Shown: in pieces, positions 11,949-18,928 of the stretch
Layout of the letters: each line of letters begins with the position of its first letter
How positions within the stretch are numbered: position 1 is the stretch's first letter
Position numbers and translations under genes: made by a program
NCBI GenBank assembly: GCA_023473665.1
Contig: JAMCYM010000002.1
Span: forward strand, 248,001 to 312,000
DNA length: 64,000 nucleotides
Direction of reading: 5' to 3'
Origin: Candidatus Marsarchaeota archaeon
GTDB taxonomy: Archaea; Micrarchaeota; Micrarchaeia; Micrarchaeales; Micrarchaeaceae
The notes under the pieces: generated by a model
Database searches by the model: none
What the model was told of the DNA's origin: nothing
The model's input: the letters and a program-made list of their open reading frames with translations, nothing else

Positions 11949-12533
11949 TCACTTAGTAAGAATATACTCTTTGAATTTAGACGCCGCTTTCATTCTGTGG
12001 CTGAACTTGATTCTCTCACCTACTGGAATTTCACATACAAATCTAGAATCACCATCCGGTATAAAGAGTTGGTTGAATGGAAAACCTGTCTCTCCCCCTC
12101 CATTATATTTTAATGAGAGTCTGCCATACGCCTCTCCAGTAAATGTTACCGGTACATCGGACGACTCGTCCATATACGAAAGGATCGTGAAGAAATGGGC
12201 TCTATCCCCCTCGTCTATAAGCCTCTTGATACCCTCGATACCAAGACCTTCAATTATCTGTTTGGTGTTTGTGCCGGGAAAATTGTTGTACCTGTCTATA
12301 TATATACCGGAATCATCAACAAGTATCGGTTTTTTTATCTGCCCAAATGCGTCCAACGCCTTCTGTTGTGAAACTTTCTGCAAATCATCTTGCTGTAATT
12401 CGTTAAATTTTATTGACAAAGGTTCTATTTCTATGCCGCTGCCTCCAAATGCTTCTCTGAACTCCTTCAGTTTGCCTTCGTTTGTTGTTGCAACAAATAT
12501 TTTTCTATTCACACTCTCACTCCTTTCTTGCAC
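11949..12533 (-). CDS. Divergent HAM1/RdgB-type nucleoside triphosphate pyrophosphatase
   Basis: 194 residues. The family frame is clear: N-terminal ATTNEGKLKEF, catalytic LVDDSGIY, a GGETGF glycine loop and the C-terminal FSHR. HAM1 proteins hydrolyse non-canonical (d)NTPs such as ITP/XTP to monophosphates. Here the usual base-pocket segment GFGYDPIF reads GFPFNQLF, so Asp is replaced by Asn and Pro by Gln, and the FPG segment continues TNTKQI instead of the usual VYSAR type. Altered base specificity is therefore plausible. It is third in an operon with the ThyA-like protein and the methyltransferase, overlapping the latter by 17 nt. A GTG at 12512 is an alternative start. Confidence 0.8.
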   Translation of the reverse strand: MQERSESVNRKIFVATTNEGKLKEFREAFGGSGIEIEPLSIKFNELQQDDLQKVSQQKALDAFGQIKKPILVDDSGIYIDRYNNFPGTNTKQIIEGLGIEGIKRLIDEGDRAHFFTILSYMDESSDVPVTFTGEAYGRLSLKYNGGGETGFPFNQLFIPDGDSRFVCEIPVGERIKFSHRMKAASKFKEYILTK

Positions 12534-13158
12534 ATACTCTTATAACCCGCGATCCTACCTTACCGTCAAAATTAATTCTATTAAACTTCTTCTCTTTCAA
12601 TAAGCAAGTTATCTCGCGTTTTGTAAATGCTTTCTTGTATGATTCTTGTGCTTTGAACTTCGCGGTCTTGGTGTTCGACAAAAAGTCGAATAGTATCGCG
12701 CCGCCAGGCTTTAACACCCTATTGATCTCGTTAAGCATCTGATTTATTTTGGCCTTTCGTGCTAACAATGATATAAGGATGCCTCTGCTTATGGCAATGT
12801 CAACACATTCACTCTCTATATGCATATCTGTAACTGAAGCGTACAATATTCTTGCCTTGGGATATTTCTTCTTTGCTATTTCTAGCATCTTATAAGAAAT
12901 ATCCAACAACATAAGATTTTTTACATGCTTTGCTAGTACTGCGCTCGCCTTGCCCGTTCCACATCCTATATCTATCCCAGAATCAACCTTTCCCATTTTG
13001 GAGATAATACCTGATGCAAACCTGTCAAATTTCTTATATCCATCCTCAAAATTAACATAATGGCCCGGATTTTCTATGTCGGAATCCCATCTATGCGCCA
13101 CACCGTTCCAGCCAATGGCTTTCTTTTTCCACTTAGACAGATTGCCAGAAAATTTCAT
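12517..13158 (-). CDS. Class I SAM-dependent methyltransferase
   Basis: 213 residues. Motif I is IDIGCGTGKASAVLAKH near residues 62-78, then an acidic motif II (LLDISYKMLEIAKK) and LNEINRVLKPGGAILFDF as the post-motif III block. This is a UbiE/COQ5-like small-molecule type of methyltransferase. It begins directly after the stop of the ThyA-like gene (TGA followed by ATG), so the two are translationally coupled. The substrate is unknown; given the operon, a nucleotide, nucleoside or sugar acceptor is possible. AT-rich codon use like its island neighbours. Confidence 0.85.
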   Translation of the reverse strand: MKFSGNLSKWKKKAIGWNGVAHRWDSDIENPGHYVNFEDGYKKFDRFASGIISKMGKVDSGIDIGCGTGKASAVLAKHVKNLMLLDISYKMLEIAKKKYPKARILYASVTDMHIESECVDIAISRGILISLLARKAKINQMLNEINRVLKPGGAILFDFLSNTKTAKFKAQESYKKAFTKREITCLLKEKKFNRINFDGKVGSRVIRVCARKE

Positions 13159-13788
13159 TCATCCATCCTCTGTGAATTCCATGAGTGGCCGTACTATGCT
13201 ATCAATATCTTTCTCGTATATATGTAGAGATGCAATAAAAATAGTCAGGGCACCAGCCTTGGAACCTGTTTCATTTGCAACTTTCTTGGTTAGTTCACCT
13301 AACGAGATCATATCTGCATATATCTTCTTGCCGGCATCCTGAGACCTGAAAAACGCAGCACATTGTACTCTTCCATCCCGTATCTTGAAGTCAAGTGTAC
13401 AGATGCATGGGACATGCTTCCCGTCCTTAGAAGGATCCATGAGGTTTATGGTCGCTGATTTCGACTCTCTGTTCCGTTTTAGCTTATCTATGATGTTCTT
13501 AAGCTGATTAGTCCCGTTATAATCAAGGATCCTTGCTCCGTATGAGTAACCCCAGTCAAGCACTGGCTCTTTTTCAAGGAAATTTCCTAACATGAAGTCC
13601 AGCATCTTTTTGTCAGCAAATTTATCAAGCACACGGTCGCTCTCTAAAGGATTTTCGCACACGAGCACTACATTTGTCAGCTCCTTCAAGCGATCCTGCC
13701 CATCCATTACGGCTGCACCATTTTTGTATACCACTGTCGCTGCTTCTTGCCATAGCTTACCTGGCGAATGTGCTTCTATAATTTTCAT
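13159..13788 (-). CDS. Thymidylate-synthase-family protein with Asp at the Asn177 position (possible dCMP/CMP (hydroxy)methylase)
   Basis: 209 residues. From the catalytic Cys onward it aligns without gaps to E. coli ThyA with a constant offset of 18: Cys128 (PC motif; Cys146), Arg148-Ser149 (166-167), Asp151 (169), His189 (207) and Tyr191 (209). The residue matching Asn177, which selects dUMP, is Asp159. T4 dCMP hydroxymethylase has Asp there, and Asn-to-Asp mutants of thymidylate synthase act on dCMP. The family transfers a one-carbon unit from methylene-folate to C5 of a pyrimidine nucleotide. The frame is open to 13824, but that segment contains the TATA box, so the ATG at 13788 is the start. 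First gene of a three-gene operon. Confidence 0.8.
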   Translation of the reverse strand: MKIIEAHSPGKLWQEAATVVYKNGAAVMDGQDRLKELTNVVLVCENPLESDRVLDKFADKKMLDFMLGNFLEKEPVLDWGYSYGARILDYNGTNQLKNIIDKLKRNRESKSATINLMDPSKDGKHVPCICTLDFKIRDGRVQCAAFFRSQDAGKKIYADMISLGELTKKVANETGSKAGALTIFIASLHIYEKDIDSIVRPLMEFTEDG

Positions 13789-14059: not shown

Positions 14060-15031
14060 ATGCCAACATCCAAACCTTTGATGACTAAGACTGCAGAAAA
14101 AGTGAGGTTTAAGCCGTTCGGAATCGAGCTTAGGGTTAATGCGCCAGAGGATCTGCACAGTGAGCTGCTAGATAAAAGCGCAATATACCTCCCACTTGGT
14201 GTATCATATAATATTGCTACCACACAACAAATTGAGATTAATGTAGAGAGAGGCGCACCCAGGCTGGAAATTGAAAATTTTAAGGCTAATTTAACTTCAG
14301 ATTCAAAGAATAACTCTATTGTATCTGACACGCTGCTTATAGCATCAAGGCTGCTTGAAAAGGCACTAAACCAAAACGGCATATTCTCAATGCATGCTAG
14401 CGGAGTATCATACAACGGTAAAGCAGTCCTAATTCTGGGCCCGTATGGCTCAGGCAAGACTACAACAGCATTCAATGCGTGCATGAAAAATTATACGATT
14501 AGGTACGTAACTGGCAATCGGCCGTTTTTGAAAAACAGCACTAACGAGATTCTCTATGGTATGAATTCTCATGCATCATTGCAAAGAAGCTCTCTCGTAT
14601 CGGAACTGGGAATTCGTAGCGATGCTCTAGCAAGCATGCACATAAACAAAGGCGATGACCCCTCAGTGACTATACAATCGTCAAGAGTTGTAATCGACCC
14701 GTCAGCATTCGGCGTACAGATATCTAGCTTCCCGTTAGATCTGGAGGCGCTTGTCATGGTGAGGAAATCGCACAGGGACTTAGTTTCATATGAACCCGGC
14801 ACTATAAGCGAACGGGAAATAATGGCGATATACTATGCGCTGTGTGAGTATAGTGAGAGCATATATGTGATGTTTGGACCCCGGCTAATCTTCCCAAACA
14901 TACTAAGCGAAGAGGAGAAGCAGAAGCGGTTCGAGTACGCGGAACGCCTATCAAAGAGCACCCGAATCATTTACGCTGAAGGAAAGCTCAATGACTTGTC
15001 TGCATATATAACCAAGCTTCTGCGTAAATAA
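14060..15031 (+). CDS. HPr-kinase/PEPCK-like P-loop protein
   Basis: 323 residues. After a divergent N-terminal domain, HASGVSYNGKAVLILGPYGSGKTT (about residues 113-135, given here in two parts: HASGVSYNGKA and GPYGSGKTT) matches the HPr kinase family pattern of a conserved His, a beta-hairpin and a Walker A. Related HprK-like kinases occur in polysaccharide and peptide-modification clusters and in small-molecule phosphorylation. The classic HPr substrate is not evident here. An AT-rich TATA region (AATTAAATATTAAAATG, 14029-14045) precedes the ATG. Divergent from the ThyA-like operon and convergent with the HAD gene, with no spacing between the two stop codons. Confidence 0.7.
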   Translation: MPTSKPLMTKTAEKVRFKPFGIELRVNAPEDLHSELLDKSAIYLPLGVSYNIATTQQIEINVERGAPRLEIENFKANLTSDSKNNSIVSDTLLIASRLLEKALNQNGIFSMHASGVSYNGKAVLILGPYGSGKTTTAFNACMKNYTIRYVTGNRPFLKNSTNEILYGMNSHASLQRSSLVSELGIRSDALASMHINKGDDPSVTIQSSRVVIDPSAFGVQISSFPLDLEALVMVRKSHRDLVSYEPGTISEREIMAIYYALCEYSESIYVMFGPRLIFPNILSEEEKQKRFEYAERLSKSTRIIYAEGKLNDLSAYITKLLRK

Positions 15032-15724
15032 CTACAGATTCTTAAAGAATTTAGGCACTGCCAATGGGGCCAAATTAAGTATTCTTGATGGCACGTCTCT
15101 ATGTTCATTTGCCCGGTCGACTAGCACTGCCTTCATACCGCTGGCTATCGGCCCGCTGTAGTCATTCGTTGGATTGTCACCCACGAAAAGAATCTCATTC
15201 GGCTTGCAGCTGGCTTCATCTATGACACGTTTGTATGCGCGCAAATCTGGCTTTGGAGCATTCACAGTATCTTCGCCAAGCACAAATGAGAAGTATGTTT
15301 CTAAGCCAAGCTTCCTGAGCGTCTTTCTATAGCTTATGGCTGCACCTGCTGTTAACAGCCCAAGCTTATACTTGCGTCTTTTCAATGATTCAAGCACAAT
15401 TCTTGTCTCTGGGTAAGGTGTCCTATTTCCAGCATCTGTCCATTGAGAGTTTACTATTCTTGCGAGCATGGCTACCTCGTGGTCATCGAAATCCAAAAGT
15501 ATAAGCCTAATCTCGTTCTCCAGCAGATATCCTGCACTGTCAAGCTTTGTCAACCCCTTTGACTTAAGTAAGTTTGCGATCCTTTTTGCCTTCAAGAAAG
15601 CCCTATCTATCTCTGCGAGCCTCCTGCGATAGCCTTTCTCTTTGAGTATGTTCTGTATTTTCTTATTTTTTGGCAAACTGCTGAAAAGCGTGCCTTCCCC
15701 ATCAAACACTATAACTTTTATCAT
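15032..15724 (-). CDS. HAD-superfamily hydrolase (phosphatase)
   Basis: 230 residues. HAD motif I reads VIVFDGEGTLF (canonical DxDGT/L; here D-G-E-G, so the second Asp is replaced by Glu). Motif II is LGLLTAGAA, the motif III Lys is in NAPKPDLRAYK, and motif IV is FVGDNPTNDYSG. A helical cap lies between motifs I and II, as in phosphoglycolate phosphatase-like and 5'-nucleotidase-like members. The Glu at the general acid/base position is unusual and may alter activity. Downstream of the nucleotide-kinase-like gene in the same direction. Confidence 0.8.
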   Translation of the reverse strand: MIKVIVFDGEGTLFSSLPKNKKIQNILKEKGYRRRLAEIDRAFLKAKRIANLLKSKGLTKLDSAGYLLENEIRLILLDFDDHEVAMLARIVNSQWTDAGNRTPYPETRIVLESLKRRKYKLGLLTAGAAISYRKTLRKLGLETYFSFVLGEDTVNAPKPDLRAYKRVIDEASCKPNEILFVGDNPTNDYSGPIASGMKAVLVDRANEHRDVPSRILNLAPLAVPKFFKNL

Positions 15725-16508: not shown

Positions 16509-17612
16509 ATGCACGTTGCTATATTTCGAGACGGGCCGTGGCTTCCGGCAAAGGAAGGGGGTTCGTTTGGCATAAATCAGATGATTCAGGCGTTGATGAA
16601 AAAACATATACGCGTAACTCTTGTGAGATGCTATCGTGGCTGGGATAACATCACACTATATAAAAAGGAGAAGTACACAAGCATACTGCTTCGCGAAGCC
16701 GATTTCTATGGACGATCTGAATTTATAACAGGGCTGCTTGCTAAGGCTCATGTAGATGCTGCTCACTTCGACTCACCAGAGATTCTCAATGTATATGCAG
16801 AAGCCCTCCATAATAGCCACATACCGATAGTTTGGGAGGTTCACAACATACATAGTGATCTTTTGCAACAACTGGGATATAACAGAAAGCGAATCTTGGC
16901 AATTGCTAATAGAGAACGGACAGCTGCCAATGCTTGCGATGCAGTACTGTGTAGGTCTAGTAGTGATGCAAATAAGCTTATCAATATATCTGGAATTTCC
17001 CGACATAAGGTGTTCATATACAATGGCTGCATTGATACGAAGCCATTGGAGAAACTGCGGCCTGCCCCTAGCAGCATGCGCATAGTAACGTTTGGGAACT
17101 TCTACTACGAGCCAAATAAAAGGATGTTGGTTAACTTGGTAAGCATAATGAGGGAAATGGAAAAAGTTGAGAAAGACATAATGCTAGATGTTATCGGTGA
17201 CATCCCTCCAGCGTTGCGTAGAAAAGTGGAATCGACTAATATAAAAGTTCATGGCTTTATTCCAGATCTTGCAAATGCAATCAGGCGCAATTCAATTCTT
17301 GTTGCCCCGATAGATAGCGGTTCAGGGACAAGAGTGAAACTGCTTGTTGCTATGGCATCTGGAATGCCGGTCATTACTACGACAAAAGGTGCTGAAGGTC
17401 TAGACCTTAGAGGTTCAGTGATAATATCTGACGATTTAACAGAATACCCTAAGCTTATCATGTATCTGTTGCACAATAAAAGACTTTATGCCTGCCTCAG
17501 TGCAAAAGGCAGGAAGCTCGTTCAGAAAGAATATGATTGGTTTGGTCAGATAGATCAGGTCATATCTGCTTATAGGTTTGTTGCGACTCCAAAACCTACA
17601 TCTGGTGCATAG
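16509..17612 (+). CDS. GT4-type glycosyltransferase (GT-B fold)
   Basis: 367 residues. The N-terminal domain has the glycine-rich loop KEGGSFGINQMIQAL. The C-terminal domain begins at MRIVTFGNFYYEPNKR near residue 195. The donor site carries APIDSGSGTRVKLLVAMASG, typical of GT4 enzymes in which the usual E-x7-E has diverged. Its role in the island could be glycosylation of a modified nucleotide or DNA base (T4 base glucosyltransferases are also GT-B) or of a surface glycan. Its 3' end overlaps that of the convergent phosphoribosyltransferase-like gene by 43 nt. Confidence 0.85.
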   Translation: MHVAIFRDGPWLPAKEGGSFGINQMIQALMKKHIRVTLVRCYRGWDNITLYKKEKYTSILLREADFYGRSEFITGLLAKAHVDAAHFDSPEILNVYAEALHNSHIPIVWEVHNIHSDLLQQLGYNRKRILAIANRERTAANACDAVLCRSSSDANKLINISGISRHKVFIYNGCIDTKPLEKLRPAPSSMRIVTFGNFYYEPNKRMLVNLVSIMREMEKVEKDIMLDVIGDIPPALRRKVESTNIKVHGFIPDLANAIRRNSILVAPIDSGSGTRVKLLVAMASGMPVITTTKGAEGLDLRGSVIISDDLTEYPKLIMYLLHNKRLYACLSAKGRKLVQKEYDWFGQIDQVISAYRFVATPKPTSGA

Positions 17613-18928
17613 TTAGCATCTATACCTCTTCTTCTGCTACCCAATACTCCTATTCCGCCCCTAGCATAAACCAATGATCCTATGTATGGTTCTGTCATGG
17701 CCCGCCTGAGATACAGCGCATCAGGCTCTTCCCATACAGCTTTCTTACTGCATGGTATTCCTGTTTCTTTATTTGTCTTGTACCATCCCGTTTCTGCCGG
17801 CCAATCAATAATTTTTACGATTCCTCCACGCACTACACCAGTGTGCTCATCAATAAAAGTCGTGTTGGCGTTCAGGACTATAGCAGTGTCATGCATGCCT
17901 TGAAGTTTGACAGGCACATTGAATGTAAGCCCTTTGAACGTCACGCGCTTATCAAATGGTTTGCCTGCGGCTTCTACTATAATGAATTCATTGACCCTGA
18001 AGCCAACGTGATCGTATGGTTCGTTAACGCCTAATGTCTTACGCATCGTATTTAAACCTGTAATTTTCCCCCTGAATCTGTTTATTGCTGCAAACAAATT
18101 CCAAGGCCCTGGTCTCAGTGCTAATTCTTTATTAGAACGGAAATTTGGCATAGGTTCAGCAATTCCTTTATCCACTCTTGTGATCTGCCTTTTCACTTTC
18201 TTTGCATTTGCACTCCATTTGTATAAGACCATTCCAGAGTTTAAATCATATGCTACCTCCTCAAAGTACTCAGCACCATTCGAATTTGCTGCTTCGGGTA
18301 GGCGCATACCGAACAAGAAGAATATGTCTCTTTTTCCGCTATCAGAAAACCTTGTTGCAATTTCTTTTGAAAAACTAAAAAATTCACAGGTGTCATCAAC
18401 AACAAGTAATGCTTTTCTGCTGTTATTCACTAGCTCGGTGTCTGCTTTGTCAGCGTAGAGGGTATGGGTTGGAAAAAGTACTTTACCATCTCGTGATTTA
18501 ACTGCTGCTTTATGAATCCCAAAAAGCACTAGGTCGAATGTCTTGCGCCTCGTCGTAAGTGCATAACCTACAAGCCTTCCCAATTCATAGCCCTTTATCA
18601 TTATTGGCATGAGCACTACATTGTCTGGTAGAATGTCAAGCATCTTTGGCCATGATTTTACTGCGCTTTCCACGAATATCACTGATGGATTTCTGACTCC
18701 ATAAAAAAAGTAATTCCTGAGAAGATCCCTCAGGAAGCCCTTGGCAGAATCATCCGCTTCAGGCTCAAACTGGTCGGTCCACGTTTTGGTACTGAATGTC
18801 GTAATTTTAGGAAAGGCAGAATTCCAATTTCCAAAAAAATGTGAGTATGCAGCAAGCTGCATAACATCCTTAGCTACGGCTTCACGCACAGAAACGCTTA
18901 CATTCTTCGCTGTGCCTTTCGGTACCAT
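17570..18928 (-). CDS. Large protein with a phosphoribosyltransferase-like segment
   Basis: 452 residues, unusual. Residues about 95-200 look like a type I phosphoribosyltransferase core: VVLMPIMIKGYELGRLVGYAL, then the acidic loop LLVVDDTCEFFS near 174-185 at the place of the PRPP-binding VVDD-TG-T loop. The Thr-Gly-Thr part is not conserved. The C-terminal 200 residues are of unknown fold and contain KIIDWPAETGWYK and a Gly/Arg-rich end (GVLGSRRRG). It may use PRPP or a phosphosugar, or bind such ligands without catalysis. The ATG follows the TATA element shared with the divergent guanylate-kinase-like gene. Confidence 0.55.
   Translation of the reverse strand: MVPKGTAKNVSVSVREAVAKDVMQLAAYSHFFGNWNSAFPKITTFSTKTWTDQFEPEADDSAKGFLRDLLRNYFFYGVRNPSVIFVESAVKSWPKMLDILPDNVVLMPIMIKGYELGRLVGYALTTRRKTFDLVLFGIHKAAVKSRDGKVLFPTHTLYADKADTELVNNSRKALLVVDDTCEFFSFSKEIATRFSDSGKRDIFFLFGMRLPEAANSNGAEYFEEVAYDLNSGMVLYKWSANAKKVKRQITRVDKGIAEPMPNFRSNKELALRPGPWNLFAAINRFRGKITGLNTMRKTLGVNEPYDHVGFRVNEFIIVEAAGKPFDKRVTFKGLTFNVPVKLQGMHDTAIVLNANTTFIDEHTGVVRGGIVKIIDWPAETGWYKTNKETGIPCSKKAVWEEPDALYLRRAMTEPYIGSLVYARGGIGVLGSRRRGIDANYAPDVGFGVATNL

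What the first reader, a model, noticed from the sequence alone, without database searches (positions are those of the whole stretch)
13159..13788. Thymidylate-synthase family protein with Asp at the dUMP/dCMP switch position
From catalytic Cys128 to Tyr191 every key residue aligns to E. coli ThyA at a constant offset of 18 without gaps (Cys146, Arg166, Ser167, Asp169, His207, Tyr209). The residue at Asn177 is Asp159. T4 dCMP hydroxymethylase has Asp there, and Asn-to-Asp changes in thymidylate synthase shift specificity to dCMP. The flanking PFNIA-type motif is also replaced (IYADMIS).
Basis: partly seen in the sequence, partly recalled or inferred. Interest (0 to 1): 0.78.

Follow-up and report, generated by a model that had tools for sequence, protein, structure and literature searches.

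The report
Archaeal thymidylate-synthase relative with cytosine switch
A small archaeon carries an enzyme related to the one that makes the DNA letter T, but with the amino acid that in studied relatives makes it act on cytosine instead of uracil, and it sits beside other nucleotide-handling genes, suggesting an undescribed route to a modified cytosine nucleotide in archaea.

Summary
Minus-strand ORF 13159-13788 (209 aa) is a PF00303 protein. Cys128, Arg148, Ser149, Asp151, His189 and Tyr191 align to E. coli ThyA at offset 18 without gaps, and Asp159 sits at Asn177. The model (pLDDT 95.7) has the TS fold; the closest solved structures are the cytosine enzymes AfhB and MilA.

It is not an ordinary thymidylate synthase. 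It falls below the TIGR03283 cut-off. The phosphate-binding Arg126-Arg127 pair is Lys-Ser. By sequence alignment the Glu58 segment is missing. It belongs to a compact 'Lys-Ser' subfamily (tree support 96/92) found in Micrarchaeota, Nanoarchaeota, Thaumarchaeota, one 'Rickettsiales' bin and actinomycetes. Asp occurs in P0001 and its three closest homologues, Asn in two nested nanoarchaeal members and in the actinomycetes. So Asp arose apart from the phage/MilA clade.

New here: in five of the six archaeal-type loci it lies with a Ham1-type NTP pyrophosphatase. Those Ham1 copies group together (83/85), apart from other Ham1s of these genomes. The window and a Thaumarchaeota contig also share a Tmk-like kinase, a HAD phosphatase and a glycosyltransferase.

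Best reading: a C5-modifying (d)CMP enzyme in an undescribed archaeal nucleotide cassette. Substrate, cofactor and product are unproven.

The parts
13159..13788 (-). TS-superfamily protein P0001 (209 aa), Asp159 at the Asn177 position
13312..13314 (-). codon of Asp159 (E. coli ThyA Asn177; T4 gp42 Asp179; MilA Asp186)
13405..13407 (-). codon of catalytic Cys128 (E. coli Cys146)
13456..13461 (-). Lys110-Ser111 in place of the phosphate-binding Arg126-Arg127 of E. coli ThyA; marks the subfamily
11949..12533 (-). Ham1/RdgB-type (d)NTP pyrophosphatase; groups with the Ham1 copies beside this TS in other archaea
12517..13158 (-). class I SAM methyltransferase, overlapping Ham1 by 17 bases and abutting the TS gene
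14060..15031 (+). P-loop protein with weak HprK-related-kinase similarity
   Evidence: E 0.0017, far below cut-off; no counterpart seen in the other cassettes
15032..15724 (-). HAD-family phosphatase; 38% identical to the HAD next to the TS in L091
15757..16329 (-). thymidylate-kinase-like nucleotide kinase; 33% identical to L091's, 28% to L090's
16509..17612 (+). GT4-type glycosyltransferase; 32% identical over 358 aa to L091's

Best explanation
P0001 is a compact TS-superfamily enzyme that is not the cell's ordinary dTMP maker. It uses the TS chemistry (Cys128 adds to C6, C5 becomes nucleophilic) on a cytosine nucleotide, CMP or dCMP, whose N3/N4 edge is read by Asp159, and puts a one-carbon group (hydroxymethyl or methyl) on C5. 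The neighbouring Ham1-type pyrophosphatase would supply the monophosphate from the triphosphate. The Tmk-like kinase, HAD phosphatase, glycosyltransferase and methyltransferase would process the modified nucleotide further, into a nucleoside-type metabolite or a modified nucleotide precursor. Shown here: fold, residues, clade, and the genetic link to Ham1 (and, in two loci, to kinase, HAD and GT). Inferred: cytosine substrate, C1 chemistry, order of steps, end product.
For: Catalytic Cys, Arg, Ser, His and Tyr are kept, and Asp is invariant in P0001 and its three closest homologues. The best fold matches are cytosine-nucleotide enzymes: AfhB Z 23.6 and MilA Z 22.6, against about 21 for true TS; MilA also ranks first in Foldseek and first by profile. 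Published mutagenesis ties Asp at this position to cytosine (PMC6400193, PMC5175136, PMC8670742). A ThyX-family gene is present in the window genome and in the genomes of two of the three closest homologues, so another source of dTMP is plausible. None of those four genomes showed a second PF00303 gene. Ham1 is adjacent to, or one gene from, the TS in five of six archaeal-type loci, and those five Ham1s form one group (83/85) excluding 12 others. The window and L091 share five homologous genes within a few kb: Ham1, TS, HAD, Tmk-like, GT; L090 has Tmk-like, GT and HAD proteins beside the TS.
Against: The residue toggles: L153 and L154 share the Ham1-TS pairing but have Asn, so either the substrate varies or Asp is not the whole story. 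Arg127 is lost and Arg126 is Lys, so 5'-phosphate binding must differ. Glu58 lies in a segment that the archaeal half of the family lacks in the alignment, so one-carbon transfer by the textbook route is not assured. The tandem ThyX of this genome is divergent (22 bits against a cut-off of 87.9). Nothing was assayed.
Confidence: 0.5

Rival explanations
1. It is a diverged but ordinary thymidylate synthase that methylates dUMP (the archaeal TIGR03283 role), tolerating Asp at 177.
For: Full-length TIGR03283 match at 118 bits; only PF00303 gene in the genome; the tandem ThyX is so divergent that its activity is unsure; two close relatives keep Asn.
Against: Below the TIGR03283 cut-off (174.55); Asp in all three closest homologues; Arg126-Arg127 pair lost; published N-to-D mutants lose dUMP preference (PMC8670742, citing Hardy and Nalivaika 1992 and Liu and Santi 1992); no hit in the two same-genus genomes held (84% and 59% complete); ThyX family present.
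Confidence: 0.15
2. It hydroxylates C5 of (d)CMP with flavin and oxygen, like phage AfhB, instead of adding a one-carbon group.
For: AfhB (9iqu, 9iqc) is the top structural match, Z 23.6, covers the full length in the profile search, and shares an R-S-Q motif and an Asp in the switch column; the canonical Glu58 segment is missing in P0001.
Against: Z is tied with MilA within the aligner's margin; the AfhB-like phage sequence Serr4S keeps the Arg-Arg pair and a Glu in the Glu58 column and falls in the phage clade. The flavin-binding residues of AfhB could not be compared.
Confidence: 0.12
3. It is part of a T4-like DNA hypermodification set: Ham1 as dCTPase, TS-like dCMP hydroxymethylase, Tmk-like dNMP kinase, glycosyltransferase acting on hydroxymethylated DNA.
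For: The gene functions parallel T4 gp56, gp42, gp1 and bgt (own knowledge of T4; gp42 and bgt seen side by side); Ham1, Tmk-like and GT recur beside the TS.
Against: The recognised window genes around it are cellular (ProRS, flippase, transporter-like) and no viral gene was recognised among those scanned; GT4 proteins usually act on glycans or small molecules; no PADLOC hit in the window proteins tested.
Confidence: 0.1
4. It is a non-catalytic or regulatory nucleotide-binding paralogue.
For: Nanoarchaeal relatives have replaced the catalytic Cys by Ser or Gly, so loss of catalysis does seem to happen in the wider family.
Against: P0001 and its subfamily keep Cys, Arg, Ser, His and Tyr without exception.
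Confidence: 0.1

Closest known systems
Phage T4 dCMP hydroxymethylase (gp42)
   Same: TS fold; Cys, Arg166, Ser167, His207 and Tyr209 equivalents; Asp at position 177; Ser kept at 167; a glycosyltransferase gene in the same gene set
   Different: separate clade; Arg123-Arg124 pair is Lys-Ser; Glu60 segment missing by alignment; about 40 residues shorter; cellular archaeal setting
MilA / BcmA CMP hydroxymethylases
   Same: Asp at 177, Lys at the Arg126 position, and the top match by sequence profile and Foldseek (MilA)
   Different: Ser149 where MilA has Ala176; second Arg of the pair lost; no C-terminal extra domain; no MilB-type N-glycosidase recognised nearby; the MilA-like Asp proteins fall in another clade
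Phage HY126 dCMP hydroxylase AfhB (9iqu, 9iqc)
   Same: compact TS fold, best Z (23.6), Asp in the switch column, R-S-Q motif
   Different: its close phage relative Serr4S keeps the Arg-Arg pair and the Glu58-column Glu; flavin use not testable here
TIGR03283 archaeal thymidylate synthase and its fused archaeal relatives
   Same: compact N-terminal half without the Glu58 segment; full-length profile match; nearest large neighbour group in the tree
   Different: Asn at 177, Arg-Arg pair kept in most; P0001 scores 118 against the cut-off of 174.55
Actinomycete compact TS-like proteins (Nonomuraea, Planobispora, Actinoallomurus)
   Same: same subfamily (Lys-Ser pair, F-R-S-Q motif, about 205 aa)
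   Different: Asn at 177 with a one-residue shorter loop; paired with a small membrane-protein-like gene, not Ham1

Membership tests
Thymidylate synthase superfamily (PF00303) | Pfam gathering score | tested here: met
   60.2 bits against 24.3
Thymidylate synthase superfamily (PF00303) | TS fold | tested here: met
   model pLDDT 95.7, pTM 0.91; over 190 of 209 residues align to TS-family chains at Z 20-24
Thymidylate synthase superfamily (PF00303) | catalytic Cys146, Arg166, Ser167, His207, Tyr209 | tested here: met
   C128, R148, S149, H189, Y191
dUMP-specific thymidylate synthase (ThyA) | Asn177 | tested here: not met
   Asp159
dUMP-specific thymidylate synthase (ThyA) | Arg126 and Arg127 phosphate ligands | tested here: not met
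   Lys110-Ser111
dUMP-specific thymidylate synthase (ThyA) | Glu58 for folate activation | tested here: inconclusive
TIGR03283 archaeal thymidylate synthase | curated score 174.55 | tested here: not met
   117.9 bits
T4-type dCMP hydroxymethylase | Asp179 | tested here: met
   Asp159 in the same column
T4-type dCMP hydroxymethylase | Arg123/Arg124 phosphate pair | tested here: not met
   Lys-Ser; residues named in PMC6400193
T4-type dCMP hydroxymethylase | same clade as T4 gp42 | tested here: not met
   P0001 in a separate supported clade 96/92; phage-side clade 100/97 (T4 is a long branch)
MilA/BcmA CMP hydroxymethylase | Asp186 and Lys133 | tested here: met
   Asp159 and Lys110; residues named in PMC5175136
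MilA/BcmA CMP hydroxymethylase | Ala176 for ribose preference | tested here: not met
   Ser149
AfhB flavin-dependent dCMP hydroxylase | FAD-dependent C5 hydroxylation | not testable with these tools
   fold match only
All hydroxymethylase/methylase families above | activity on dCMP or CMP | not testable with these tools
   needs an enzyme assay

The most novel reading that the evidence does not exclude
Cellular archaea of several phyla exchange a small cassette (Ham1 pyrophosphatase plus a compact 'Lys-Ser' TS-family enzyme, with kinase, HAD, glycosyltransferase or QueC-like partners) that makes a C5-modified pyrimidine nucleotide. Its base specificity has switched between cytosine and uracil by Asp/Asn changes at one position within the subfamily. 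It would be a modified-pyrimidine pathway that I do not know to have been described in archaea.
Probability: 0.4. Interest if true: 0.78.

Novelty: new variant of a known kind. Interest (0 to 1): 0.6.

Why it matters
TS-family enzymes that act on cytosine are known from phages and from nucleoside-antibiotic producers. A cytosine-type member in cellular archaea, tied across phyla to its own NTP pyrophosphatase, would point to an unstudied modified nucleotide in archaea. The subfamily holds close Asp and Asn members in a similar gene setting, so it offers a natural test of how the dUMP/dCMP switch evolves, including with an altered phosphate site.

Tried and rejected
Phage, plasmid and viral searches with P0001 found only remote TS relatives below 40% identity, none of them in the subfamily. 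Ordinary thymidylate synthase was considered and downgraded (Asp, lost Arg pair, ThyX). I tested whether Asp was inherited from the phage/MilA-like clade: the tree needs six changes of state and places the subfamily elsewhere. I tested whether the window's Ham1 is just the lineage's housekeeping copy: the two same-genus genomes gave no hit, and it groups with TS-adjacent copies of other phyla. Alternative dTMP route by dCMP methylation and deamination: the only PF00383 gene found in the genome is of cytidine-deaminase type, so this was not favoured. Known defence system: no PADLOC hit except weak QueC/QatC in one nanoarchaeal neighbour. The 452-aa protein at 17570-18928 had no useful match. 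Literature searches for a TS+Ham1+QueC system found nothing on point. The bioRxiv paper on 5-hydroxycytosine biosynthesis was not held.

Full report
Observation. The gene is on the minus strand, 13159-13788, 209 aa. It is a thymidylate-synthase-family protein by Pfam (E 2.3e-16), NCBIfam (TIGR03283 full length, 117.9 bits against a cut-off of 174.55) and PHROGs.

Published meaning of the residue. Changing Asn177 to Asp turns TS towards dCMP; Asp179 of the T4 enzyme recognises and protonates cytosine; MilA and BcmA have Asp too (PMC8670742, PMC6400193, PMC5175136). MilA's preference for ribose rests on Lys133 and Ala176. P0001 has the Lys (Lys110) but not the Ala (Ser149), so deoxyribo or ribo cannot be called. 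It also has Ser111 where Arg127 should be, and the sequence alignment shows no counterpart of the Glu58 helix, a lack shared with the TIGR03283-type archaeal proteins.

Fold. The AlphaFold2 model from a 31-sequence alignment has pLDDT 95.7 and pTM 0.91. The best solved structures are the phage dCMP hydroxylase AfhB (Z 23.6, rmsd 2.0, 196 aligned) and MilA (Z 22.6, rmsd 1.9, 200 aligned), with true TS near Z 21. The first two are tied within the method's margin. A shared fold does not show function.

Relatives. A scan of genome contigs found three close full-length homologues: a Nanoarchaeia MAG (49%), a bin labelled Rickettsiales (48%) and a Thaumarchaeota MAG (42%), then 23 actinomycete proteins at 27-32%. 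P0001 and the three close homologues all have Asp. A search of 371 genomes of the Nanoarchaeia member's phylum added L153 and L154 (228 and 211 bits), which have Asn. In a 59-row tree built without the switch column the subfamily is one clade (96/92). It lies apart from the phage/MilA-like/ThyA side and from the fused archaeal TS; the Asn-bearing L153/L154 pair nests among Asp members; Asp/Asn needs six changes over the tree. MilA itself was not in that tree, because only its partial sequence was at hand. Several branches are long, so deep positions are uncertain.

Genome context. The window genome (779 kb in 3 contigs, 95.9% complete, of a phylum with 301 genomes held) has no other PF00303 gene and one tandem Thy1-domain protein, which is divergent (22 bits against 87.9). 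Two of the three closest homologues' genomes also have ThyX. The two same-genus genomes held gave no hit for P0001, but they are 84% and 59% complete.

Gene cassette. In the window the order is Ham1, methyltransferase, TS (all minus, overlapping or abutting), HprK-like, HAD, Tmk-like kinase, GT4. The Thaumarchaeota contig L091 has GT, Tmk-like, an unassigned gene, Ham1, TS and HAD, homologous to the window's genes at 32-42% identity except for the unassigned one. The L090 contig has Tmk-like, HD, GT, HAD and TS. The nanoarchaeal loci have Ham1 overlapping the TS start, followed by a QueC-like gene. The five Ham1 proteins that accompany this TS group together (83/85), and 12 other Ham1s from the same genomes and relatives fall outside. 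This is moderate support, but it agrees with the repeated adjacency. I infer that Ham1 supplies the nucleoside monophosphate.

Conclusion. The reading best supported is an enzyme that modifies C5 of a cytosine nucleotide inside an exchanged archaeal nucleotide cassette. The fold, the residues, the clade and the Ham1 link are shown. Substrate, cofactor, product and the cassette's purpose are inferred.

Noticed in passing
L155-L157, L159-L165, L167-L171 (nanoarchaeal genomes): A group of standalone TS-like proteins of about 215-230 aa in which the catalytic Cys position reads Ser or Gly in most of those read (for example VPSLL, VPGLV), while Arg166 and Asn177 equivalents are kept; possibly non-catalytic TS paralogues.
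   Followed up: partly
L034-L041, L115-L120, L130, L133: Archaeal and CPR TS domains fused to an N-terminal domain that by eye resembles methyltetrahydromethanopterin methyltransferase subunit A, and to a C-terminal domain; most keep Asn177 and the Arg pair. The domain identity was not tested.
   Followed up: no
L092-L114: In 20 of 23 actinomycete loci a conserved ~223-aa membrane-protein-like gene lies next to the compact TS-like gene; a representative has no Pfam or PADLOC match and no NCBIfam match.
   Followed up: partly
L172:5850-16536 and L173:6586-14716: Ham1-TS-QueC-like genes stand in a longer conserved run with a vWA-like protein, a pyruvate-kinase-barrel protein, two unknowns, an AAA+ (MoxR-like by eye) protein and a large unknown protein.
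   Followed up: partly
L149:7791-8432 (IMGVR_UViG_3300013099_000018): A viral contig encodes a compact TS with Asp at the switch position; two oppositely oriented matches lie on the same contig.
   Followed up: partly
L086:7871-21536 (Streptococcus salivarius pSaLI10): An Asp-type TS gene lies in a plasmid cluster with an AAA ATPase, PqqD, CYTH, phosphotransferase, 8-oxo-dGTP diphosphatase, QueA-like and ABC transporter genes; might be a nucleoside natural-product cluster.
   Followed up: no
G000:C3:30505-31995 (L002, L003): A 638-aa open frame with two Thy1 domains, far below the ThyX equivalog cut-off; whether it makes dTMP is unclear.
   Followed up: partly
window 17570-18928: A 452-aa protein with no database match; the stretch KALLVVDDTCEFFSF looks like a phosphoribosyltransferase PRPP loop by eye.
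   Followed up: partly
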